64,000 bases of DNA, from NCBI GenBank assembly GCA_004293365.1, contig RDYN01000020.1:1-64000 (forward strand), given 5' to 3'. Of this stretch, positions 2,473 to 47,962 are shown piece by piece. Source of the stretch: Oscillatoriales cyanobacterium. GTDB taxonomy: Bacteria > Cyanobacteriota > Cyanobacteriia > Cyanobacteriales > Microcoleaceae. Below the pieces are notes generated by a model. It ran no database searches. It saw only the letters and a program-made list of their open reading frames with translations, and was not told where the DNA came from. Made by a program: the position numbers and the translations under genes. How positions within the stretch are numbered: position 1 is the stretch's first letter; every line of letters begins with the position of its first letter.

Positions 2473-2508
2473 GTCAAACCCGTAGCCAAACCCGTAGCCA
2501 AACCCGTA
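2473..2508. repeat. 12-bp tandem triplication
   Basis: The unit ccaaacccgtag (with small variation) is repeated three times in tandem. It leads directly into the composite hairpin element that follows. Confidence 0.75.
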
Positions 2509-2635
2509 GTCCGGCGGGGGTTGAAACCCCCGCCTCAAAGCGAAAGTCCTCTTTAGAGGACTAAAGAACTCATCAGTCCTCTTTAGAGGACTTTCGCTAT
2601 TAGACAGGGGTTTAAACCCCTGGCGGTCTATCGGG
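2508..2635. repeat. four-hairpin composite palindromic element (copy A)
   Basis: There are four short palindromes in order: GGCGGGGGTTGAAACCCCCGCC (described by its centre GGGGTTGAAACCCC), GTCCTCTTTAGAGGAC, the same again, and CAGGGGTTTAAACCCCTG. Complementary boxes, CAAAGCGAAA on the left and TTTCGCTATT on the right, enclose the inner pair. The outer ends CCCGTAG and CTATCGGG also pair. Copies B, C and D share the architecture with different stem sequences. Confidence 0.8.
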
Positions 2636-2640
2636 TTTCA

Positions 2641-24858: not shown

Positions 24859-25002
24859 TTTTTGCGTTTGTTCCGCAATCCGACAGGGAATTAATTCCCG
24901 GCCCAATTACGGGCGAATGCAAAAATTCTTGAATACCCAAAATTTTCGATGAATGCAAAAACTCTTGAGTACCAAAAATCTTGGGTCAGCCCGAGGGTCC
25001 GA

Positions 25003-25131
25003 CAGGGAATTAATTCCCTGTCTCATAGCGAAAGTCCTCTCAAAGAGGACTAAGATTGCCACGATTTAATTGAGATTTGCCAGTCGGTTTTTAACCGACT
25101 TTCGCTATGAGACGGGGAATTAATTCCCGGC
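25003..25131. repeat. four-hairpin composite palindromic element (copy B)
   Basis: The stems are GACAGGGAATTAATTCCCTG, GTCCTCTCAAAGAGGAC, GTCGGTTTTTAACCGAC and GGGGAATTAATTCCC. The complementary boxes TCATAGCGAAA and TTTCGCTATGA are perfect reverse complements. Confidence 0.85.
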
Positions 25132-25227
25132 CCAATTACGGGCGAATGCAAAAACTCTTGAATACCTAAAATTTTCGATGAATGCAAAAACTCTTGAGTA
25201 CCAAAAATCTTGGGTCAGCCCGAGGGT

Positions 25228-25366
25228 CCGACAGGGAATTAATTCCCTGTCTCATAGCGCAAGTCCTCTCAAAGAGGACTCAAGAGAAGAATTTTCAACT
25301 CATTAGTCCTATGCAAGAGGACTTTAGCTATTAGACAGGGGTTTTTAACCCCTGGCGGACTATCGG
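25228..25366. repeat. four-hairpin composite palindromic element (copy C)
   Basis: The stems are GACAGGGAATTAATTCCCTG, GTCCTCTCAAAGAGGAC, GTCCTATGCAAGAGGAC and CAGGGGTTTTTAACCCCTG. The boxes TCATAGCGCAA and TTTAGCTATTA are less perfect. The right end GGACTATCGGG matches copy A. Confidence 0.82.
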
Positions 25367-29254: not shown

Positions 29255-29419
29255 TGCTACAATTAGTAGATGTAGTTTTTGTTAGCTATAGCCTTTCGAG
29301 CGTAACAGTTCGGTGTTCATAGGGCCTAGGGCATAGAGTTGTAGGGTGGGTCAGTCGGGGTTTTTTCGATTATCATAAAGTAGATGCCATCTGAGGCACT
29401 TTACTTAAATCAATCAAAG

Positions 29420-30298
29420 ATGAAAAATCTCGAACAATTAAGCGAAATTGCCCAGGCCGCCGCTTGGGGTGCCGCAGATATTTTACAATCTTATTATCGC
29501 CCTGATGCGAATACTCCGAACCTAGACATCAAAGAACAAAAAGACGGCCCGGTTACCGCAGCCGATGTCGCTGTCAATTCTTACATTCTCGATGAATTGC
29601 AGTCGGTTTTAGGGAATTCAGAATTTGGCTATCTCAGCGAAGAAACTTACAAGTCTTATTTAGAAAGTTGCGGCAAAGTTCCTTTACCTCAATCTTGGGT
29701 TTGGATTATTGATCCTTTGGATGGGACGCGCGATTTTATTGACAAGACTGGTGAATTTGCCGTTCATATTGCTTTGGCCTTCGAGGGAAAACCCGTATTA
29801 GCAGTGGTGGCTTGGCCGGAAAAGCAAAAGATTTATTATGCCATCCGGGATGCGGGCGCTTTTGTGGAAAGTCGCGGGGATTCTGCGGTGAAATTGCAGG
29901 TTTCTGCGCGCAGTATAGTGGGAGATTTATCTATAGTAACCAGTCGCAGTCACCGGGACGATCGCCTAAATCGACTATTGCACAAATTTCCCTGCCAAAA
30001 TCAACTGGCTGTGGGTAGCATCGGCTGCAAGATTGCGACGATTGTCGAACAAAAAGCTGATGTTTATATTGCGCTTTCGGGGAAGTCTGCGCCGAAGGAT
30101 TGGGATTTGGCTGCCCCGGAATTGATTTTGACGGAGGCGGGCGGCAGATTTACTCGTTTTGATGGTTCTGCTTTGCAATATAACCGGGGAGATGTCAGTC
30201 AGTGGGGGGGTTTATTGGCGAGTAACGGTTGCTGTCACGATGATTTGTGCGGGAATGCTGAGGGGATTTTGGCGGAGATAGATTCCGGTTTGTGGTAA
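29420..30298 (+). CDS. cysQ: 3'(2'),5'-bisphosphate nucleotidase / inositol-monophosphatase family
   Basis: The roughly 292-residue product has the two metal-site motifs of the family: IIDPLDGTRDFI (about residue 100) and WDLAAPELILTEAGG (about residue 230), plus GYLSEET earlier. CysQ removes the 3'-phosphate of PAP from sulfate assimilation; closely related enzymes act on inositol phosphates or FBP, so the exact substrate is inferred. I start at MKNLEQLSE, as in most relatives; an ATG 36 bp upstream would add 12 residues. A hairpin repeat follows the stop. Confidence 0.82.
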   Translation: MKNLEQLSEIAQAAAWGAADILQSYYRPDANTPNLDIKEQKDGPVTAADVAVNSYILDELQSVLGNSEFGYLSEETYKSYLESCGKVPLPQSWVWIIDPLDGTRDFIDKTGEFAVHIALAFEGKPVLAVVAWPEKQKIYYAIRDAGAFVESRGDSAVKLQVSARSIVGDLSIVTSRSHRDDRLNRLLHKFPCQNQLAVGSIGCKIATIVEQKADVYIALSGKSAPKDWDLAAPELILTEAGGRFTRFDGSALQYNRGDVSQWGGLLASNGCCHDDLCGNAEGILAEIDSGLW

Positions 30299-30304
30299 TC
30301 ACGT

Positions 30305-30367
30305 TGGTTGGTAGTGAGGATTTCATTCCTCGGAATGAATGCGGACTGAAGTCCTCACTACGAACCT
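30305..30367. repeat. short hairpin repeat after cysQ
   Basis: GGTTGGTAGTGAGGAT on the left and CCTCACTACGAACC on the right flank variable short palindromes. It begins 6 bp after the cysQ stop. Confidence 0.75.
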
Positions 30368-30730
30368 GTTTTTTCATTGCACATCACATTATTAACCTAG
30401 AACAAGTATTAATTAATACATTTAAATGCCCGTAATATCACACTTACGTTTCAAAAATATTTGTGGTAAGCGCAATGTGCCTTCATCGCAGTCATTGTAC
30501 TTAAGTATTTTCTAGCTCTTTATCGGTACTTTAAATTAACCACCTCTTTTTAAAGAAAACTTTATATAGCTTATGTAAGAAAACTGTTATTGTAGCTACA
30601 ACAGATGAGAAATAACCGAATTTTTACGCAGAACTGCTGTGTCTGTGTAAATCAAAATTGATAGAGAGTTTCTGACGCAAGTCACGAAATAGGGGAATTG
30701 TTGTCTTTTTTACCCCAAAGTAGGTGTAGT
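30368..30730. other. AT-rich leader of the giant secreted-protein gene
   Basis: About 360 bp of AT-rich DNA without reading frames, presumably holding the promoter and 5' untranslated region of the DUF4347 gene. No clear promoter match could be assigned. Confidence 0.45.
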
Positions 30731-33700
30731 ATGTCAAATTTAAATTTTCCAGTTTCAGTAAGAGCGATCGCCTTTATCGACAGTCAAGTACCAGATTATC
30801 AAAGTTTGGTGGCTGGGGTAACACCCGGTACGGAAGTTGTGGTGTTAAATGGGAACGAGGATGCGATCGCACAAATTACTCAAATCTTAGCTCTTCGCAC
30901 GAATATTGAGAGCATCCACATCATTTCTCACGGCACTCCCGGAAGCTTGAAACTGGGAAAAACCCGATTGTCTGTCGATAACCTAGAAACTTATTCCCAG
31001 CAATTGCAGGAATGGCAGAATGCTTTGTCTCTGAGCGCAGAAATTCTAATTTATGGTTGTAATGTGGCATCGGGGCCTCGCGATTGCCCGCAAGTCCAAC
31101 CGGGGTTGAAACCCCCGTCTCATAGCGAAAGTCGGTTTCAACCGACTGGGAATAATTCATTTATTCAGTCATCTTTAGATGACTTGTGCTATGAGACGGG
31201 GAATTTATTCCCCGGCGGTATCGGGGAACAAACGAGAGATTTAGATGTAGATTTAGAAATAGATGGTTTCGCCTTCATCCAGCGCATCGCCCAACTCACA
31301 AATACCAATGTTGCAGCTTCCAAAAACCTCACCGGAAGCGCTCAAAAAGGGGGGGACTGGGAATTAGAAACAACAACTGGGCAAATTAAAACATCGTTAG
31401 CTTTTTCAGCAGAAATTTTAGCAAATTATGAAGGAATTCTCTCTTCATTCAGCGCTGCCACTAATTTTCCAATGGCATCTGATGCCTTCGTTCCCTCAGT
31501 AGACTACAACGGCGATGGCATTTTTGACTTAGTTGTAGGCGGCGTAATTTACTTAGCCAATGGCACCGGCAGTTTTAGACTTCCTATTAGTAATGGAAGT
31601 GCCATGAGTGCTCTGGGCAACTTTGATAGCGGTAGCATTTTTGACTTAGCAACAGTCAGCGGTGCCAGTGGCGCTAATGCTGTTGGAATTCGCTTGGGTA
31701 ACGGTAATGATGGTTTCAATGCGCCCAATACCTTTGGGGCAGGATTTCAGGCTATTGGAGTTGCTATTGGTAACTTTAACACCGATACCTTCCCTGACTT
31801 AGCGGTAACAAACTTTAACTCTGGCAGTCCCACTGGCAACGTTTCTATTCTTTTGGGAAATGGCACCGGCGGCTTTACCGGCTCTACTAATATTAACCTT
31901 GGAGTATCTGGTGCTGCTGGCGTTGTTGTCGGGAGATTTAATGCTGATAACTTTGACGATTTAGCCATAGCTAATAGTATTTCCAACAACGTTTCTATTT
32001 TATTGGGGAACAGCACTGGCGGTTTTAGTGCCGCTACCAATTTCGGTACGGGGCAAAATCCCAATACTATTATCGCAGCAGACTTTAACGGAGATGGCAG
32101 CGTTGACTTAGCGACAGCCAATAATGGTTCTAATAACATTTCAATTTTGTTAGGAAATGGTACTGGAGGTTTTGCTGCTGCTACCAACTTTAACGTCGGC
32201 ACCAAGCCCAACGGACTTGCAACAGCCGACTTTAACAGTGACGGCAGCCTTGATGTAGCAGTATCTAACTATGACTCTAATAACGTATCAATTTTGACTG
32301 GAAATGGCGCGGGAGGCTTTAACCCAGCAATTAACTTTGCTTTGGTAGGGACAAATGCCGGCCGAATCTCAGTCAACGATTTTAACAATGACTCTTTGCC
32401 AGATTTGGGAGTAATGATAACGAATGGTGCTTCTAGCGAAGTATCAATGCTCCTCAATACACCCAGTAAGGTAAGTTTTGTCGGCGCCAAAAATAGTGGT
32501 AGTTACAATGTCAATGAAGGCACTACCGACACAGTAGTTAATGTCCCCGTTACTATCAGCAACAGCAGTTCTTTCGGCGATGTAGTTGTACCAATTGTCA
32601 TCGACCCCAGCAGCACAGCTACTCTAGGTGCTGATTACACTCTTTCAACTACATCGCTGACTTTTCCTGCCGGAACTACTACTCTCACTCAGAATGTTGC
32701 AGTCACCATCAAAGCTGACAATATCGTTGACAGCAACGAACAAATTGTTCTAAACTTTGGCAAAATAACAGGTGGCACTGCCGTTACTGGTGCCAGCAGT
32801 CAAGCTAAAGTCTTTATTTTGGATCGGAATAGTTCTTATACTATTGCCTCCAATACTCCTAGTATTCTCGAAGGCAATTCTGGCAAGACTCCCGCCACAT
32901 TTACGATCGCTCGCAATGGCAGCACGGAACTTTTCAGTACGGTAGATTATAGTATGGCCGGAACTGCGACTAACGGCAGCGACTACAACAATATTGGTGG
33001 CACTTCTGGCGCAACGACTGCTACTGGCAAAATTACTTTTGCAGCGGGCGAAACATCCAAAACTATTACTTTGGATGTGTTGGGTGACGGATTGGTTGAA
33101 CCGGACGAAACAGTTACGGTTACTCTATCAAATCCTGTTTCACCGGGTGGCGCGCCGACAATTCCGACGGCAACTGCTACCATGACGATCGCAAATGATG
33201 ACACTGCCGGCTTCACCGTTGCACCTACGAGCATCACTGCTACAGAAGGCGGCGCAAAGGGCAGTTACAAAGTCAAGCTAACTTCGGAACCTTCTGCACC
33301 AGTTAACATTAGCTTCAATACTGGCAATGCAATTAGCCCGATCGCCCAAATTACATTTGACAGCACTAACTGGAATGTTGAGAAGACTGTGACTGCTACT
33401 GCGATCGACGATACTGTAGCACAAGGAACGCACGCAGGCACGATCGCACACACAGCTAGCAGCACCGATGCGAGTTATAACGCCAAACCGATTCCCGATG
33501 TTACGGCATCAATTACAGATAACGATAGTCCGGGTGTGTCGATCGTGCAATCGGCAGGAAGTACAAATATTGCTGAAGGCGGTGCAACGGCTACCTACGG
33601 CGTGCTTCTGACTAGCGCACCTACTGCAAACGTTACGATTAATTTTGACGCGGGCAGTCAAATTAGTGCGATCGCACCTCTGACTTTCACGCCGAATAAT

Positions 33701-36700
33701 TGGAATGTTGTGCAAAATGTGACTGTGAGTGCGATCGAGGACAGCATAGCCGAAGGAACCCACAGCGGCACGATTACTCACAAATCGGTCAGCACCGATA
33801 CCAAGTATAACAACCTGACGATTTCTCCTGTAACTGCCACGATTGCTGACAACGATACGGCAGGCGTGACTATTTCACCGACGAGTACAACTGCTACGGA
33901 AGGTGGTGCTACAGGGAAGTACAGCGTTCAGTTAACATCCCAGCCCACGGCGCCTGTGACGATTAGTTTCGGTACAGGGGATCAAATAAGTGCGATCGCT
34001 GCTGTTACTTTTGACTCTACTAACTGGAATGTGGCGAAACCAGTCACAGTAACGGCTACAGACGATGCGGTTGTAGAAGGAAATCATACAGGGACTATTT
34101 CTCATACGGCCCAGAGTGCTGACACTAAGTATAACGGGATTGTCGGGATTCCGAATGTCGCGGTGGCGATTACAGATAACGATGTAGCGCCGACGCCGAC
34201 ACCGCAGCCACCTACACCGACGCCTGTCGAGCCGCAGCCACCGACACCAACGCCTGTCGAGCCGCAGCCGCCGACACCAATACCTGTCGAGCCACAGCCG
34301 CCGACACCAATACCTGTCGAGCCACAGCCGCCGACACCGACACCTGTTACGCCGACGCCGCCAACACCAACGCCTAGCGTCGATCCGCAGCCGCCGACAC
34401 CAACGCCTAGCGTCGATCCGCAGCCGCCGACACCAACGCCTAGCGTCGATCCGCAGCCACCGACACCAACACCACCGACACCAACGCCAACTCCGACGCC
34501 GATATCTCGGATATTTGACGACTCTGGGAAACGTAGCGATCGACCCTTATCGATTAATCTGCCGCTAGGTAATGGAAATGTCGATCGAATTCAAAGTGCT
34601 CCCCCCACGGTAAGTTTTTCCCAAGCTACTTACAAAGTCAATGAAAGTCGCACAGGAGTCGTTCAGGCAGAAATTACTCTCACTCGGACTGGGGATGATC
34701 TAAACAAAATTTCCAAGGTGTACATAGAACCTACTACTGGTTCAGCGACTTTGGGAACAGATTGGAACTTTTCCCCCAATTTCTCTCGTGAAATCACCTT
34801 TAACCCAGACGAAGATACTAAAACTTTCAAAATTGACATATTATCGGATAGTCAAGCTGAGAGAACAGAAAAAATTGAGTTTCGGATCACCGATCGGGGT
34901 AATGCCAATATTGGCACTCAAGGCTCTACCACCTTGCAAATTTTGGATGCTGACTCACTTTTCACGGACACGAACGCTCCGATATCTGCTTTGGATTCAG
35001 GTATTTTGGGAGACTACAACAATGACGGAAAACTGGATATTCTTGGTGGCTCTGTAATTCAAACCAACAATTACGGCCCGATCACCACAGTTCCCCGAAT
35101 CTACGACAACATCGGTCAAGGCTTTAGCGAAGCTAATCGAAGAGACTTACCAGGCCAGGTTCCAACCTGGGGAGATTACAACAATGATGGGTGGCTGGAT
35201 GCTGCACTGCTTGGGCAGAATGGTGGCGATTCCAGCCAACAGATCTATAGTGGTGGGAGTTCTGGCTTTACCTTTGAGACAAGTTTACCTGGGAATCCCC
35301 CATACCCATATAGATCTTGGTCAAGTTGGGGAGATTACAACAATGACGGGCGTCCCGATCTGTTGCTCAGTAAGGCAAATAACGGAGGTTATGGGTTCAG
35401 AGACTTGAACACCACGCTCTACCGGAACACGGGCGCAAGCGGTCAAAACCGCTTTGAAGACAGCAAAGCACGTCTCAAGACACAAGATCCCAACTTTGTA
35501 GGTGCCGGACAGCTATTTTCTGATGACACAATAGCTGGCGCTACCAAATCGGGGGTTTGGGCAGATTACGATAACGATGGCAAACTCGATATCCTAGTCC
35601 AGGTAAAGGACTCCAAAGACATTAATTCAAGGTACATTGCCAAACTTTACCGGAATTTGGGCGATGGCGTTTTTGAAGACACTGGTGTAAATTTGCCTGG
35701 TTCTAGTGGTGACGCTGGTGATATGGCATGGGGAGACTACAACAACGACGGTCAACTGGATATTTTGCTCGCAGGTCGCGATAGTTCTTTGCAGTCGTCC
35801 TTCACCAAAGTCTACCGCAACAAAACCCGTGAAAATAAAAATAAGTCTGCCAGCTTTGAAGACATCGGCGCACAGATACCTTATTTAGGTCGCCCTGCTT
35901 GGGGAGATTACGACAATGACGGGCTTCTGGATATCCTAGGCACTGGTGTCGATCGACAAAATGGCGAAAATTCAGCAACAATCGTCGCCAAAGTCTATCA
36001 AAACAAAGGTAATTTTTCTAACCTAAACAGCTTTACTGGCCCAAACAGCTTTATCGACAGTGGCCTACTAATCGACAGTGGCGAAAGTCGCACGCAGGAA
36101 CTGATTAATCGTAGCTATTCCCAGGCTGTTTGGGGAGACTACGACAAGGATGACAAATTAGATATCCTATTCACAGGCAATGCACCAAACAATGATGTCT
36201 ATCAAGGACTGAACAAAAACGACTTCTTTACCAAAGTCTTCCGCAACAACTCTAAAGCGAACACTCCCCCCACAGCACCCACAGGGCTATCAGATTTACC
36301 TTCTGGCCGAAATGTGACTCTTAAGTGGAACAAAGCAACTGACGCTCAAACTCGTCCTGATGGTTTAAGCTACAACCTGCGAGTTGGGACGACACCAGGG
36401 GGTCAAGATATTCTTTCCCCGATGTCTCTAGCCAATGGAACTCGGCAAGTTGTAGGGCTAGGAAATGTCAGTCAAAACACCCAGTGGCAACTCAAAGACT
36501 TGTCTCCAGATAAGACATATTACTGGAGTGTACAGGCGATCGACACTGCTTGGGCTGGTTCAGAGTTTGCCACAGAAGAGAGTTTTACAGCCAGCAATCT
36601 TCCTCCAGAACAGAAGATTAATTTAGGCGGGAGGTACACTGAATTTAACAAAGCCATCAAAGATGTATACACTGACCCCGATGGCGACTTGATTTCCTAT

Positions 36701-38398
36701 CGGTTAACTCTAACTGATGGCAGTCCTTTAGAACTTAGTAATAACTCAAACATCAATTGGCTCGGACTTCAATTTTACTCCCCGACAAACGAGATCCGGT
36801 TCATCGGAACTCCCCCAAGCGGTGCGCCATCTTTTCAGGCAAAGTTAATAGCTACAGACTCTTACGGTGCCAGTAGCGAACAGACTTTCAAGGTAACAAC
36901 AAAAGAGGGGCGCTGGGTAATCGACGGCTACATCTCTGGTGCAACTGTCTTCCTAGACGCCAACAAAAACGGCATCAAAGATACCAACGAACCATCCACC
37001 ACAACCGATTCAGGCGGTAAATTCAATCTCAACATCCCCTTCGAGACTTTCGATACCAACAAAAACGGAGAAATCGACCCATCAGAAGGCAATTTAGTCG
37101 CAATTGGAGGCACAGACACCGCCACCGGATTACCCCTAGAAACACCAGTCACCGCACCTCCCGATTCCAGTGTAGTCACCCTCTTAACCAGCTTAGTCGC
37201 CGACTTAATCGACAAGGGAATTGCACCAGAAGAAGCCCAATCTTTAGTCAAAGCCGCCCTTGGACTCCCGGCTGATGTTGACCTGACTAGCTTAGATCCG
37301 ATCTTGGCTACCAACAACAACCAGCCAGGGGGCGTCGCAACTTTAGCAGCAATGGTGAAAGTCCAAAACGTCATCACTCAAACAGTCGCTTTGATTGACG
37401 GTGCATCCAGTGCAGCCGATCGCGATCTTGTCAAAGCAGTTGTCAGTTCAATGGGCGATAAAATTCAAGGCGGTACAATCTTAAATCTCAGCAACGGGGC
37501 AGCCTTAGAACCAATAATTAAGCAATCCGCTGCTAAAATCCAGCAGATTGACCCCAGTTTCAACATTCAGAAAGTCACCCAAATTACCTCGCAATCCGCG
37601 ACAGTAATGGCAACAGCAAATCAGCGCATTGATGCCGCCGTCACCAACCCAACAGCAACATCAATTCCCCAAGCCGTTGCCCGCGTCCAACAAGTATCTT
37701 TGGGAACAACCACTCAAGACTTCAAAGCAGTCGGTGCCGGAAGCAAGCCAATTTCCCAGCTAGTTACTGACAATACTGGTGCTGCATTAGATAGCAAAAT
37801 TCAAGCAGTAACATTGCCTGCTGGGATTGCAACTCCTCTTGTCACCGGCGACGCCGATTTGGGCAGCAATTCCCCCAGTCAAATCAACGGCACTCAGGGC
37901 GACGACATCCTCACCGGCACCACCGGAAATGATGCAATCAACGGCTTCCGAGGCAATGATTCGCTCTCCGGCGGCCTTGGGGATGACACTCTTTACGGCG
38001 GCAAAGGTAGCGATACTTTGCTGGGCGCTAGCGGTGATGATATCTTATTTGGCGGCCGCGGTGCTGATATCTTGAACGGCGATGATGGTAATGACATCTT
38101 GTTTGGCGGCAAAGGAGATGATTTGCTGAATGGCGGTTTGGGAGATGATACTTTGACTGGAGGAAAGGGAGTTGATAAATTCCTAATTTCCACCAATTCC
38201 GGGACTGATACTATTACCGACTTTGAATTGGGTAAAGACTTCTTAGTATTGGGTAACGGGCTGACTTCTTCACAATTGATGATTAGTCAAGATAGCGGTA
38301 TAACATTAATCCGGTTTGCCCAAACAGGGGAGATTTTAGCTTCTATCAGTGGAGTTTCTCCTGGCAGTATTACCGCAGGGAGTTTTGGATTAATGTAA
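30731..38398 (+). CDS. giant DUF4347 / FG-GAP / Calx-beta / RTX surface or secreted protein
   Basis: The roughly 2555-residue product has: an N-terminal DUF4347 domain (about 15-240, including IHIISHGTPGSLKLG and LIYGCNVASG); FG-GAP/VCBS repeats (240-580); two Calx-beta domains (about 585-820); three repeats with TATEGGA and QISAI (820-1150); a Pro/Thr-rich linker of PQPPTPTPVE units (1155-1257); another Calx-beta domain; a second FG-GAP set with GDYNNDGKLDIL (1415-1840); fibronectin- and cadherin-like domains; an SdrB-like segment (ATVFLDANKNGIKDTNE); and RTX calcium-binding repeats near the C-terminus (GGKGDDLLNGGLGDD). This is the pattern of type I secreted cyanobacterial adhesins. I start at MSNLNFPVSV. 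A palindromic repeat lies in frame inside the DUF4347 domain (residues about 120-165). Confidence 0.85.
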   Translation: MSNLNFPVSVRAIAFIDSQVPDYQSLVAGVTPGTEVVVLNGNEDAIAQITQILALRTNIESIHIISHGTPGSLKLGKTRLSVDNLETYSQQLQEWQNALSLSAEILIYGCNVASGPRDCPQVQPGLKPPSHSESRFQPTGNNSFIQSSLDDLCYETGNLFPGGIGEQTRDLDVDLEIDGFAFIQRIAQLTNTNVAASKNLTGSAQKGGDWELETTTGQIKTSLAFSAEILANYEGILSSFSAATNFPMASDAFVPSVDYNGDGIFDLVVGGVIYLANGTGSFRLPISNGSAMSALGNFDSGSIFDLATVSGASGANAVGIRLGNGNDGFNAPNTFGAGFQAIGVAIGNFNTDTFPDLAVTNFNSGSPTGNVSILLGNGTGGFTGSTNINLGVSGAAGVVVGRFNADNFDDLAIANSISNNVSILLGNSTGGFSAATNFGTGQNPNTIIAADFNGDGSVDLATANNGSNNISILLGNGTGGFAAATNFNVGTKPNGLATADFNSDGSLDVAVSNYDSNNVSILTGNGAGGFNPAINFALVGTNAGRISVNDFNNDSLPDLGVMITNGASSEVSMLLNTPSKVSFVGAKNSGSYNVNEGTTDTVVNVPVTISNSSSFGDVVVPIVIDPSSTATLGADYTLSTTSLTFPAGTTTLTQNVAVTIKADNIVDSNEQIVLNFGKITGGTAVTGASSQAKVFILDRNSSYTIASNTPSILEGNSGKTPATFTIARNGSTELFSTVDYSMAGTATNGSDYNNIGGTSGATTATGKITFAAGETSKTITLDVLGDGLVEPDETVTVTLSNPVSPGGAPTIPTATATMTIANDDTAGFTVAPTSITATEGGAKGSYKVKLTSEPSAPVNISFNTGNAISPIAQITFDSTNWNVEKTVTATAIDDTVAQGTHAGTIAHTASSTDASYNAKPIPDVTASITDNDSPGVSIVQSAGSTNIAEGGATATYGVLLTSAPTANVTINFDAGSQISAIAPLTFTPNNWNVVQNVTVSAIEDSIAEGTHSGTITHKSVSTDTKYNNLTISPVTATIADNDTAGVTISPTSTTATEGGATGKYSVQLTSQPTAPVTISFGTGDQISAIAAVTFDSTNWNVAKPVTVTATDDAVVEGNHTGTISHTAQSADTKYNGIVGIPNVAVAITDNDVAPTPTPQPPTPTPVEPQPPTPTPVEPQPPTPIPVEPQPPTPIPVEPQPPTPTPVTPTPPTPTPSVDPQPPTPTPSVDPQPPTPTPSVDPQPPTPTPPTPTPTPTPISRIFDDSGKRSDRPLSINLPLGNGNVDRIQSAPPTVSFSQATYKVNESRTGVVQAEITLTRTGDDLNKISKVYIEPTTGSATLGTDWNFSPNFSREITFNPDEDTKTFKIDILSDSQAERTEKIEFRITDRGNANIGTQGSTTLQILDADSLFTDTNAPISALDSGILGDYNNDGKLDILGGSVIQTNNYGPITTVPRIYDNIGQGFSEANRRDLPGQVPTWGDYNNDGWLDAALLGQNGGDSSQQIYSGGSSGFTFETSLPGNPPYPYRSWSSWGDYNNDGRPDLLLSKANNGGYGFRDLNTTLYRNTGASGQNRFEDSKARLKTQDPNFVGAGQLFSDDTIAGATKSGVWADYDNDGKLDILVQVKDSKDINSRYIAKLYRNLGDGVFEDTGVNLPGSSGDAGDMAWGDYNNDGQLDILLAGRDSSLQSSFTKVYRNKTRENKNKSASFEDIGAQIPYLGRPAWGDYDNDGLLDILGTGVDRQNGENSATIVAKVYQNKGNFSNLNSFTGPNSFIDSGLLIDSGESRTQELINRSYSQAVWGDYDKDDKLDILFTGNAPNNDVYQGLNKNDFFTKVFRNNSKANTPPTAPTGLSDLPSGRNVTLKWNKATDAQTRPDGLSYNLRVGTTPGGQDILSPMSLANGTRQVVGLGNVSQNTQWQLKDLSPDKTYYWSVQAIDTAWAGSEFATEESFTASNLPPEQKINLGGRYTEFNKAIKDVYTDPDGDLISYRLTLTDGSPLELSNNSNINWLGLQFYSPTNEIRFIGTPPSGAPSFQAKLIATDSYGASSEQTFKVTTKEGRWVIDGYISGATVFLDANKNGIKDTNEPSTTTDSGGKFNLNIPFETFDTNKNGEIDPSEGNLVAIGGTDTATGLPLETPVTAPPDSSVVTLLTSLVADLIDKGIAPEEAQSLVKAALGLPADVDLTSLDPILATNNNQPGGVATLAAMVKVQNVITQTVALIDGASSAADRDLVKAVVSSMGDKIQGGTILNLSNGAALEPIIKQSAAKIQQIDPSFNIQKVTQITSQSATVMATANQRIDAAVTNPTATSIPQAVARVQQVSLGTTTQDFKAVGAGSKPISQLVTDNTGAALDSKIQAVTLPAGIATPLVTGDADLGSNSPSQINGTQGDDILTGTTGNDAINGFRGNDSLSGGLGDDTLYGGKGSDTLLGASGDDILFGGRGADILNGDDGNDILFGGKGDDLLNGGLGDDTLTGGKGVDKFLISTNSGTDTITDFELGKDFLVLGNGLTSSQLMISQDSGITLIRFAQTGEILASISGVSPGSITAGSFGLM
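31087..31225. repeat. four-hairpin composite element inserted in frame in the DUF4347 gene (copy D)
   Basis: The stems are CCGGGGTTGAAACCCCCG, GTCGGTTTCAACCGAC, GTCATCTTTAGATGAC and GGGGAATTTATTCCCC, with the boxes TCATAGCGAAA and TTGTGCTATGA. ATCGGGG occurs on both sides (31069-31075 and 31220-31226). The frame is kept through the element, which encodes a Pro/Ser-rich stretch containing KPPSHSESRFQPTGNN between GCNVASG and FAFIQRIAQL, a junction that is continuous in other DUF4347 proteins. Confidence 0.85.
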
Positions 38399-38477: not shown

Positions 38478-38655
38478 GCGTTTTTTTCGACCGTCGGCCC
38501 AGGCCGACATTGTTTGTATAGCCGCGGTTTCAACCGCCGTCCGATCTTCAGTCCGCGTCGGCGGACATTGTTTGTACAGCCGCGGTTTCAACCGCCGTCC
38601 GATCTTCAGTCCGCGTCGGCGGACTTCGTTTGTATAGGATCGGTTTCAACCGCCG
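38478..38655. repeat. 58-bp tandem palindromic repeats
   Basis: CCGCGGTTTCAACCGCCG occurs at 38522 and 38580 and in variant form at 38638, a 58-bp period. Each unit also contains CAGTCCGCGTCGGCGGAC. It follows the RTX gene and may serve as a 3' structure. Confidence 0.8.
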
Positions 38656-38754
38656 AGGGCCCATCGCAAAATCAGGGGCTAGATCCCCCCTAACCCCCCT
38701 TAAAAAAGCAGGGTGGTTTTATTGTCGGAAAAGAAATCTGAAACTACTTAATCA

Positions 38755-46678: not shown

Positions 46679-47962
46679 CTATCTTTGATTCCAAGCCGTA
46701 GCCGCATCAGCCACAGCTTGCTCTACTGGTTTTTCGCCTAACATTGCCGCTTGCAAATTGTCATAAATTGCCTTTTGCAACTTCTTAACATCCTTGAGAG
46801 GCGGAATCAACAACTCAGCTTTGTCCAACCCAGAAGCGCTGATAATCCTAGCTCGATCGCTCGAAGCAGCATCGGCAGGAGCGCTCTTAAAATAACCGTC
46901 CTGCAAAGTCTCAACCGTGGAAGGCAAAACATTAGCAGCCTTCGCAAAAGCCAACTGATTTTGAGAATTAGTTACGTACAAAGCAAACTTGACAGCATCA
47001 TCAGGGCGCTTGCTGTCGCGGGGCACAACTAAATTCATTACTGCCACAGTTTTCTTGCCAGTTTCTCCGGTAATTTGAGGTGCAGCAGTTGAAACAGCAC
47101 CTATACTCGGAGCATTCTCAGAAATTGCCTTTAAAAACTGAGGCCCGGAACCCAACAAAGCAGTTTCTCCAGCTTGATAAAGCTCGATCGCCCTGCGGTG
47201 TCCCTGCACCAAAACATCCTGCGGTAACAGCCCGCCCTTGTACAAATCAACCCAATACTGAAAAACAGCTTTGCCCTTAGCTGTATTAAAAGCAGCCTTG
47301 CCTTGAGCATCCACCAAAGGCACGCCCATCTGCACGAAAGATTGCAACACTTCCGCCGAATCTTCCGGTACAAAAGTCGCAAAAAAAGCAAACTTACCAG
47401 TTTTCTCTTTTACCTGTTTTGCAACAGTTGCCAACTCGGCATAGGTAGCCGGAGGCTTGGTAATTCCAGCTTTTTTAAACAATTCCGTATTGTAAATAGT
47501 TACAGGAGTTGTAAGATACCAAGGAATGCCAAAAGTCTTGCCATCGAGCACGCTAGCTTTCCAGATATTTGGCAGATAGCTCGATCGCACTTGCTGCGAA
47601 ATCCGAGAGTCCAAATCCAGCCAAGCATTGCGCCCCGCCAACAGCGAAGCAAAATCCGGATTCAGGTTCACCACATCCGGCGCAGTTTTTGCCGATACAG
47701 CCCCCAAAATCTTGCTTTCCATCGCCGACCAAGGCACGTCCACCCAGCGCACCTTCACGCCCGGATTTTCCGCTTCAAAACCGGCGATCGTCTTGTTGAA
47801 ATACTCAGTAAACTGAGGTTGAAGTTGCATAGTCCAAAACTCGATCGCGTTCGCATTATTGGTCTGGGAATTCACGGCCGGCTTGTTGCAACTGACCACC
47901 GCAGCTAGCATCAGCCCCACCAGCCCAAACACAGCGAACAGTTGCCAAGATTTACGTTTCAT
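46679..47962 (-). CDS. extracellular solute-binding lipoprotein (family 1, sugar ABC transporter)
   Basis: The 427-residue product has a signal peptide with a probable lipobox (GLMLAAVVSC) and a mature start CNKPAVNSQ. Its body shows IEFWTMQLQPQF, a family-1 substrate-binding pattern, ending with KALEKAIYDNLQ-like helices and TAWNQR. It should capture a sugar or sugar-like solute in the periplasm for an ABC importer. Permease and ATPase genes are not adjacent, so the partner transporter is elsewhere. Substrate unassigned. Confidence 0.88.
   Translation of the reverse strand: MKRKSWQLFAVFGLVGLMLAAVVSCNKPAVNSQTNNANAIEFWTMQLQPQFTEYFNKTIAGFEAENPGVKVRWVDVPWSAMESKILGAVSAKTAPDVVNLNPDFASLLAGRNAWLDLDSRISQQVRSSYLPNIWKASVLDGKTFGIPWYLTTPVTIYNTELFKKAGITKPPATYAELATVAKQVKEKTGKFAFFATFVPEDSAEVLQSFVQMGVPLVDAQGKAAFNTAKGKAVFQYWVDLYKGGLLPQDVLVQGHRRAIELYQAGETALLGSGPQFLKAISENAPSIGAVSTAAPQITGETGKKTVAVMNLVVPRDSKRPDDAVKFALYVTNSQNQLAFAKAANVLPSTVETLQDGYFKSAPADAASSDRARIISASGLDKAELLIPPLKDVKKLQKAIYDNLQAAMLGEKPVEQAVADAATAWNQR

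What the first reader, a model, noticed from the sequence alone, without database searches (positions are those of the whole stretch)
31069..31226. A palindromic element inserted in frame inside the DUF4347 domain
Copy D interrupts the DUF4347 domain between GCNVASG and the FAFIQRIAQL strand, where homologues are continuous. It is bracketed by ATCGGGG and keeps the frame open through all four hairpins, adding about 45 residues. Rickettsia palindromic elements do this in proteins; I know of no equivalent reported for this element type in cyanobacteria. Exact excision of one ATCGGGG-delimited unit would shift the frame, so the ancestral join must have differed slightly or the reading frame has adapted.
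Basis: partly seen in the sequence, partly recalled or inferred. Interest (0 to 1): 0.78.

Follow-up and report, generated by a model that had tools for sequence, protein, structure and literature searches.

The report
In-frame palindrome in a cyanobacterial protein
A repeated DNA palindrome that normally lies between genes sits, in the correct reading frame, in one flexible loop of a family of large cyanobacterial proteins, where it seems to be kept more as a DNA or RNA hairpin than as a protein part; it is a cyanobacterial counterpart of a curiosity known from Rickettsia.

Summary
Window 31077-31225 is a four-hairpin palindrome of a dispersed family: 53 places in this genome, with relatives in other genera. 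It lies in frame in a DUF4347 protein, between YGCNVA and FIQRIAQLT. It is not private to this gene: the same site is filled in frame in many DUF4347 genes of the genus (named relatives are Microcoleus-like), sometimes with tandem copies or other nested palindrome families. Of 38 full-length copies in long ORFs, 36 share one codon phase; 8 of 75 fetched copies elsewhere are open in it. Behind the same cysQ-like gene, five genomes are filled and four empty. The ATCGGGG bracket is not a duplication scar: 1 of 7 alleles has it. Stem bases covary, coupling amino acids (R..P 20, Q..L 14 of 36). Element dN/dS is 0.89, flanks about 0.3. The insert is modelled as disordered, starting three residues after an invariant, possibly catalytic, Cys. 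Best reading: an RPE-like protein-coding palindrome, tolerated in a loop and constrained mainly as nucleic-acid structure; a new variant of a known kind. I found no such cyanobacterial report in an open-access library.

The parts
30731..38398 (+). Host gene: DUF4347 + FG-GAP + Calx-beta + RTX repeats, 2,555 residues from the ATG (ORF from TTG at 30698)
30767..31078 (+). First half of the DUF4347 domain (residues 13-116)
30929..30931 (+). His67 of the invariant SHG motif
   Evidence: invariant in 23 of 23 aligned rows; catalytic role inferred only, from the fold match
31058..31060 (+). Cys110 of YGCNVA, three residues before the linker
   Evidence: invariant in 23 of 23 aligned rows
31070..31273 (+). 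Linker of 68 residues; 5 or 7 residues in the element-free homologues of this subfamily
31077..31225 (+). Copy D of the palindromic element (family model positions 2-152 of 153)
   Evidence: L031:1847-1995
31095..31099 (+). Outer stem, left arm (degenerate in this copy)
31100..31117 (+). Hairpin 1 (one mispair in this copy, columns 25-40)
31118..31129 (+). Middle stem, left arm (TCTCATAGCGAA)
31130..31147 (+). Hairpin 2 (AGTCGG..CCGACT)
31167..31184 (+). Hairpin 3 (AGTCATCT..AGATGACT)
31185..31196 (+). Middle stem, right arm
31197..31214 (+). Hairpin 4
31215..31219 (+). Outer stem, right arm
31220..31273 (+). Acidic spacer (18 codons), outside the element core, present in the seven 68-residue alleles
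31274..31441 (+). Second half of the DUF4347 domain, from FIQRIAQLT
29384..30298 (+). cysQ-like gene (name by eye) upstream; used to mark the orthologous locus in eight other genomes
2504..2637 (-). Another copy of the family in the window (L024:1497-1630; near-symmetric)
24980..25133 (+). Another copy (L028:1482-1635)
25209..25366 (+). Another copy (L028:1711-1868)

Best explanation
It is a protein-coding palindromic repeat, a cyanobacterial analogue of Rickettsia palindromic elements. A roughly 150-bp, four-hairpin, near-symmetric element that is dispersed mainly outside long genes entered the loop after the GCNVA motif of a DUF4347 domain. It was kept because that loop tolerates length and disorder and because one frame of the element can be free of stops. 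It spread through the family by gene duplication and, probably, exchange between paralogues. Tandem copies and other palindrome families were added into the same loop, and some alleles lack it. Shown: identity, site, frame, recurrence, presence/absence at one orthologous locus, pairing and covariation, predicted disorder. Inferred: that the element is or was mobile as a unit; that the hairpins are preserved by selection on folded DNA or RNA, or by hairpin-templated correction, rather than for the peptide; that exchange between paralogues explains the patchy pattern.
For: Family of 53 places in the genome. In one search (list cut), 38 of the 39 listed matches in stop-free frames of 240 or more codons are DUF4347 genes. 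36 of 38 full-length copies in such ORFs share one codon phase, against 8 of 75 fetched copies elsewhere open in it. Five filled and four empty alleles behind the same cysQ-like gene. A copy in a tRNA cluster is present in 2 and absent in 6 compared genomes. In-gene covariation: 60 cells changed on both sides against 23.0 shuffled, score 0.123 against 0.066, 0 of 500 shuffles as high. Coupled residues R..P 20, Q..L 14 of 36. Seven alleles: element pS 0.171, pN 0.154 (dN/dS 0.89), flanks pS 0.404/0.446, pN 0.147/0.184 (0.28/0.31). Unpaired third positions of the element diverge like flank third positions (0.353 against 0.314/0.359), those in hairpins 1+2 by 0.133, so the element does not look younger than the gene. 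AlphaFold: residues 116-176 pLDDT under 50, N-terminal core blocks 86-96.
Against: The covariation controls do not remove shared ancestry. 'Further pair types' was below the shuffles (500 of 500 at least as high), and the 10 pairs changed on both sides were reached by 10 of 500 shuffles. In the middle stem one pair is unpaired in 23 and another in 9 of 36 copies. With seven alleles the paired/unpaired contrast at third positions is not significant (p 0.077; with 36 related copies p 0.014), and the dN/dS values pool non-independent pairs. Unpaired positions show a codon-like pattern (0.18, 0.18, 0.35), so some protein-level constraint is likely. The 75 comparison copies are not a random sample: many were picked by me because they lie outside long ORFs (of the 24 that came straight from the DNA search of G000, 3 are open in the phase), and one of the 8 open ones is itself a broken DUF4347 allele, L081. 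No transposase was sought, no clear target duplication in the gene was found, and no expression data were available.
Confidence: 0.68

Rival explanations
1. The insert is a functional protein segment. DUF4347 looks like a clan CD (legumain/caspase-like) domain, and the insert lies just after the putative catalytic Cys, where caspases (recalled) carry their inter-subunit linker; the loop could control processing or activity.
For: Foldseek hits: legumain 4n6o E 2.6e-4, GPI transamidase 7wld_K 9.2e-4, caspase-3 1.0e-3; H67, G68 and C110 invariant in 23 of 23 rows; frame kept in 36 of 38 copies; codon-like pattern in the unpaired parts.
Against: Element dN/dS 0.89; linker of 59-213 residues among parsed element-bearing genes and 5 or 7 in empty ones of this group; predicted disorder; empty alleles at the same locus. 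TM-scores of the fold match are low (0.41 at best) and other folds (flavodiiron proteins, UDP-glucose dehydrogenase) appear close behind.
Confidence: 0.12
2. Low synonymous divergence and pair changes reflect recent replacement of the segment by gene conversion among paralogues or from other copies, not structural constraint.
For: Patchy filled/empty states on the domain tree; 37 of 38 in-gene copies fall in one part of a poorly resolved element tree; stems shared with copies outside genes.
Against: Unpaired third positions of the element are as divergent as flank third positions, which recent replacement of the whole segment would not give.
Confidence: 0.2
3. An mRNA-level function: the folded element inside the transcript acts as a processing, pausing or stability element for a very long mRNA.
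For: Strong fold; pairing in 93.9% of cells in coding copies, 90.6% when shuffled.
Against: Empty alleles at the orthologous locus; near restriction to one site of one family is not what a general mRNA function predicts; no RNA family match (only weak miRNA-family scores far below their thresholds).
Confidence: 0.12
4. One reading: one insertion private to this gene, delimited by a 7-bp ATCGGGG duplication.
For: Exact 7-mer at 31069 and 31220.
Against: Pair identical in 1 of 7 alleles; same insert in many genomes and paralogues.
Confidence: 0.02

Closest known systems
Rickettsia palindromic elements (RPE; Ogata et al. 2000, 2002, known to me here from passages of PMC2229807, PMC10969869 and PMC2996958) and Wolbachia coding palindromes (named in the same passages)
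   Same: About 105-150 bp palindromic dispersed repeat, between genes and in frame inside proteins, reported as lying in non-structured segments
   Different: RPEs enter many unrelated proteins; this element was found in frame almost only at one site of one domain family, repeatedly, in tandem and with other repeats nested; host is a cyanobacterium; four-hairpin architecture; no sequence comparison with RPE was made
Intragenic GTAG/CGTC REPs (PMC3733652; passages and section 15 read, its Additional file 3 not seen)
   Same: Palindromic repeats inside ORFs, one case (recB of two Xanthomonas) at about the same site
   Different: REPs are 20-40 bp units with a GTAG or CGTC tag at one end, which I do not see at the ends of this consensus; the unseen file may list cyanobacterial cases
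Enterobacterial RU-1/2/3 (PMC2759123, abstract seen)
   Same: MITE-like repeats with open frames found inside annotated genes
   Different: Other hosts; no recurrent single-site insertion described in what I saw
MITEs of cyanobacteria, e.g. Nezha, and MITEb/MITEe of Anabaena PCC 7120 with open frames (named in passages of PMC10969869)
   Same: Small dispersed repeats of cyanobacteria, some with open frames
   Different: No in-frame insertion into a conserved protein domain is stated in the passages seen; not compared by sequence
Coding palindromes of Nematomorpha mitochondria (PMC6649704, abstract seen)
   Same: Hairpin structure and coding preserved together
   Different: There both arms encode conserved protein and selection is described at amino-acid level; here constraint is mainly on pairing, in a disordered insert
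Small dispersed repeats of Nostoc (Elhai et al. 2008, recalled; paper not held)
   Same: Cyanobacterial hairpin repeats with nested insertions (recalled)
   Different: 21-27 nt units (recalled) against about 150 bp here

Membership tests
Protein-coding palindromic repeat (RPE-like) | Dispersed palindrome of about 100-150 bp, many copies, outside and inside genes | tested here: met
Protein-coding palindromic repeat (RPE-like) | In frame in an otherwise open gene of which homologues without it exist | tested here: met
Protein-coding palindromic repeat (RPE-like) | Insertion into many unrelated proteins | tested here: not met
   (list cut): 38 of 39 listed matches in stop-free frames of 240 or more codons are DUF4347; the other is a half copy in G021:C68
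Protein-coding palindromic repeat (RPE-like) | Lies in an unstructured protein segment | tested here: met
   prediction only: pLDDT under 50 for residues 116-176
Rickettsia RPE families proper | Sequence homology to the described RPE families | not tested
   no RPE sequence was fetched; I claim likeness in kind, not membership
MITE | Target site duplication | tested here: inconclusive
   one copy in a tRNA cluster: near-identical 9-bp repeats CCTTGAAAG/CCTTGGAAG at the ends of an insertion of about 186 bp; none established in the gene
MITE | Related transposase | not tested
   no transposase search was run
GTAG/CGTC REP | Terminal GTAG or CGTC tag | tested here: not met
   not at the ends of the consensus of 36 in-gene and 40 of 75 other copies; exact element ends are not known
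Pfam DUF4347 (PF14252) | Profile match above cut-off | tested here: met
   201.6 bits, cut-off 24.6
Clan CD cysteine peptidase fold | Fold with His-Gly and Cys motifs | tested here: inconclusive
   best E 2.6e-4 to legumain but TM 0.41 at best, model pTM 0.75; H67, G68, C110 invariant; superposition of the residues not checked, activity not testable here

The most novel reading that the evidence does not exclude
The loop after the putative catalytic cysteine of DUF4347 is a landing pad where at least three unrelated palindrome families (this one, the VGAGSPT and the RQDACST families) pile up in frame. Base pairing in the DNA or RNA dictates coupled amino-acid changes, so a selfish hairpin writes a hypervariable linker into a caspase/legumain-like surface protein and may tune its processing.
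Probability: 0.22. Interest if true: 0.82.

Novelty: new variant of a known kind. Interest (0 to 1): 0.62.

Why it matters
It extends in-frame palindromic repeats to free-living cyanobacteria and gives many parallel alleles, filled and empty, of one locus. That makes an old question testable: is an element inside a gene kept for the peptide, for the hairpin, or for nothing? The coupled amino-acid changes that go with base pairing are also a caution against reading all protein covariation as protein contacts.

Tried and rejected
Rfam search of 30000-32000: only sub-threshold miRNA-family scores. ATCGGGG as target duplication: rejected by orthologues. Single origin against many origins: not settled; the element tree has few supported branches (21 of 110 starred), and the divergent copy G013:C76 stands apart on a long branch. 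Gain or loss at the cysQ locus: not settled. The LSAIA/LTSFT linkers look like deletion products because they differ from the canonical AGETGKA, but this is inference. A second empty-site test (copy in G000:C194) was not clean, since relatives carry other sequences there. The genome-contig scan gave four loci only, used for names. Elhai 2008 not held. PDB by VIA-align not available.

Rows left out and weak points: 56 of 60 loci gave a parsed DUF4347 domain and 53 of these went into the tree, three lacking the right half (a faulty pattern in 32 was mended in 33). 40 of 75 copies outside long ORFs were aligned in A2. 7 of 36 in-phase copies, those with a 68-residue linker, went into the dN/dS count. 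Copies covering under 120 model positions were dropped before the phase count. ORF lengths in the phase count are those inside the fetched stretch; frames of 2 of the 75 other copies run off it. The L044 copy was scored by the model on the other strand and counted out of phase, although its peptide aligns in the same register. At the cysQ locus G008 has about 2.3 kb between cysQ and the DUF4347 gene, and only part of cysQ is on the stretch held for G020 and G026.

Full report
What is there. The window lies in a 7.3-Mb genome (G000, contig 67); the four named records found with the host protein are Microcoleus, Tychonema and an Oscillatoriales MAG. A gene at 30731-38398 encodes DUF4347, FG-GAP, Calx-beta and RTX repeats. 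Between residues YGCNVA and FIQRIAQLT, where element-free homologues of this group have 5 or 7 residues (such as LSAIA, LTSFT, AGETGKA), it has 68. About 50 of these are encoded by a palindromic element, 31077-31225, and the last 18 by an acidic spacer. The element region folds far better than shuffled sequence (z -5.7) and matches no Rfam family at threshold.

The family. BLAST with the element gives 92 matches in the genome, merged to 53 places on 33 contigs, 37 of them spanning at least 100 bp. In a sample of the order, 24 of 120 genomes match its peptide at E 0.001, 20 of them outside the genus. The listed matches outside the genus lie in frames of at most 124 stop-free codons or contain stops; that list was cut. 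The shared architecture is: outer stem, hairpin 1, middle stem enclosing hairpins 2 and 3, hairpin 4. RNAalifold on 40 other copies finds the outer stem and the four hairpins by itself, but not the middle stem.

Same site, again and again. The search with the host protein found matches in 29 of 29 genomes of the genus. Reading the genes showed the element in frame at the same place in many genomes and in three genes of G000 itself. C6 and C122 of G000 carry two copies each; other genes carry one or two full copies, sometimes with partial ones or with other palindrome families nested inside. In one search (list cut), 38 of the 39 listed matches in stop-free frames of 240 or more codons are DUF4347 genes; the other is a half copy in G021:C68. 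In the family-wide search (40 genomes, 31 outside the genus) the listed matches outside the genus end at residues 113-117, just before the linker, so they give no sign of this insert; those genes were not read.

Frame. Of 113 full-length copies in the fetched loci, 38 (in 31 loci) lie in ORFs of at least 240 codons, and 36 of these share one codon phase. Of the 75 others, 8 are open in that phase. The 75 are not a random sample, since many were picked because they lie outside long ORFs; of the 24 that came straight from the DNA search of G000, 3 are open. One of the 8 is the broken DUF4347 allele G001:C202. Other broken alleles: G001:C141 is frameshifted inside the element, and G007:C67 ends in a 266-codon frame.

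Filled and empty alleles at one locus. A cysQ-like gene upstream marks the locus. It is filled in G000, G006, G011, G010 and G008 (in G008 with about 2.3 kb between), and empty in G023, G024, G020 and G026. Trees of cysQ and of the DUF4347 flanks do not settle gain or loss. Over 53 DUF4347 domains the element state changes 10 times on the best tree and at least 5 times by starred branches. In the element tree 37 of 38 in-gene copies fall in one part, with weak resolution. Exchange between paralogues is a likely contributor, but is inference.

Constraint. In 36 in-gene copies, pairing holds in 93.9% of cells (90.6% shuffled) and cells with double changes exceed every shuffle (60 against 23.0); sliding the partners by 1-3 columns brings pairing down to 38-51%. 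The controls do not remove shared ancestry, 10 of 500 shuffles reached the number of pairs changed on both sides, and further pair types were not raised. Because the pairs lie in codons, residues change together: R with P in 20 and Q with L in 14 of 36 copies; the window's own copy is one of the two exceptions. For seven alleles with equal linkers, pooled dN/dS is 0.89 in the element and 0.28 and 0.31 in the flanks, because synonymous divergence is low (0.171 against 0.404 and 0.446) while nonsynonymous divergence is alike. This is not simply youth: unpaired third positions of the element diverge like flank third positions (0.353 against 0.314 and 0.359), whereas those in hairpins 1 and 2 diverge by 0.133 (p 0.077 with seven alleles, 0.014 with 36 related copies). 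The unpaired part keeps a codon-like pattern, so some protein-level constraint remains.

Protein context. AlphaFold puts the insert at pLDDT under 50 beside an N-terminal core of 86-96 (mean 70.1, pTM 0.68). The model of an element-free homologue matches legumain, GPI transamidase and caspases (best E 2.6e-4, TM 0.41 at best), with unrelated folds not far behind. H67, G68 and C110 are invariant in 23 rows. A clan CD-like fold is therefore plausible but not proven. The linker starts three residues after that Cys, a region where caspases (recalled) carry their processed linker.

Mobility. A copy inside a tRNA cluster is present in G000 and G021 and absent in six relatives, where the flanking sequences meet; near-identical 9-bp repeats flank the insertion. 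This suggests, but does not prove, a target duplication. The identical ATCGGGG pair in the gene is private to this allele among seven.

Comparison with what is known. In-frame palindromes are reported from Rickettsia, Wolbachia, an archaeon and other bacteria (passages of PMC2229807, PMC10969869, PMC2996958; section 15 of PMC3733652). In my searches of an open-access library I saw no report of one in a cyanobacterial protein domain. PMC10969869 does name Anabaena MITEs with open frames, the list of intragenic REPs in PMC3733652 (Additional file 3) was not seen, and subscription papers were not covered. It works like an RPE. It is not shown to be one by sequence, and it differs in using, nearly always, one site of one family.

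Noticed in passing
L145 (G021:C110), L146 (G026:C253), L147 (G008:C128), L148 (G007:C206), L090 (G021:C68): Another palindrome family (peptide VGAGSPT..KPAPTP) lies in frame in unrelated proteins: an SLH-porin-like protein (three copies), a NACHT-like NTPase after the Walker A motif, a channel-like N-terminus and others (protein names by eye).
   Followed up: partly
G027:C1:6338132, G025:C504:5665, G012:C395:32982, G028:C1:6739718 and others: A third family (RQDACST..FSCGVGILPAHRKV) falls in stop-free frames of about 700 codons in several genomes; host protein not identified.
   Followed up: no
L073, L042, L065 (linker ends): After the element several alleles carry a tandem array reading E-Y/C-A-I-D-N/D of very variable length; the DNA may be HIP1-like (not checked).
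   Followed up: no
window 38525-38660: Three copies of CGGTTTCAACCG spaced 58 bp apart just downstream of the gene.
   Followed up: no
window 30330-30365: A GGACTGAAGTCC-type hairpin lies between the cysQ-like gene and the DUF4347 gene.
   Followed up: no
PDB 9qpe chain G; 11xu chain A1: The DUF4347 profile weakly matches a solved 'DUF4347 domain-containing protein' (E 0.0066) and an 'Epithelial cell-transforming sequence 2 oncogene-like' chain (E 0.00066).
   Followed up: no
L014 (G000:C204, near 46709-46833): Element copy in a tRNA cluster, before a tRNA-Ser gene, present in two and absent in six genomes, flanked by near-identical 9-bp repeats.
   Followed up: partly
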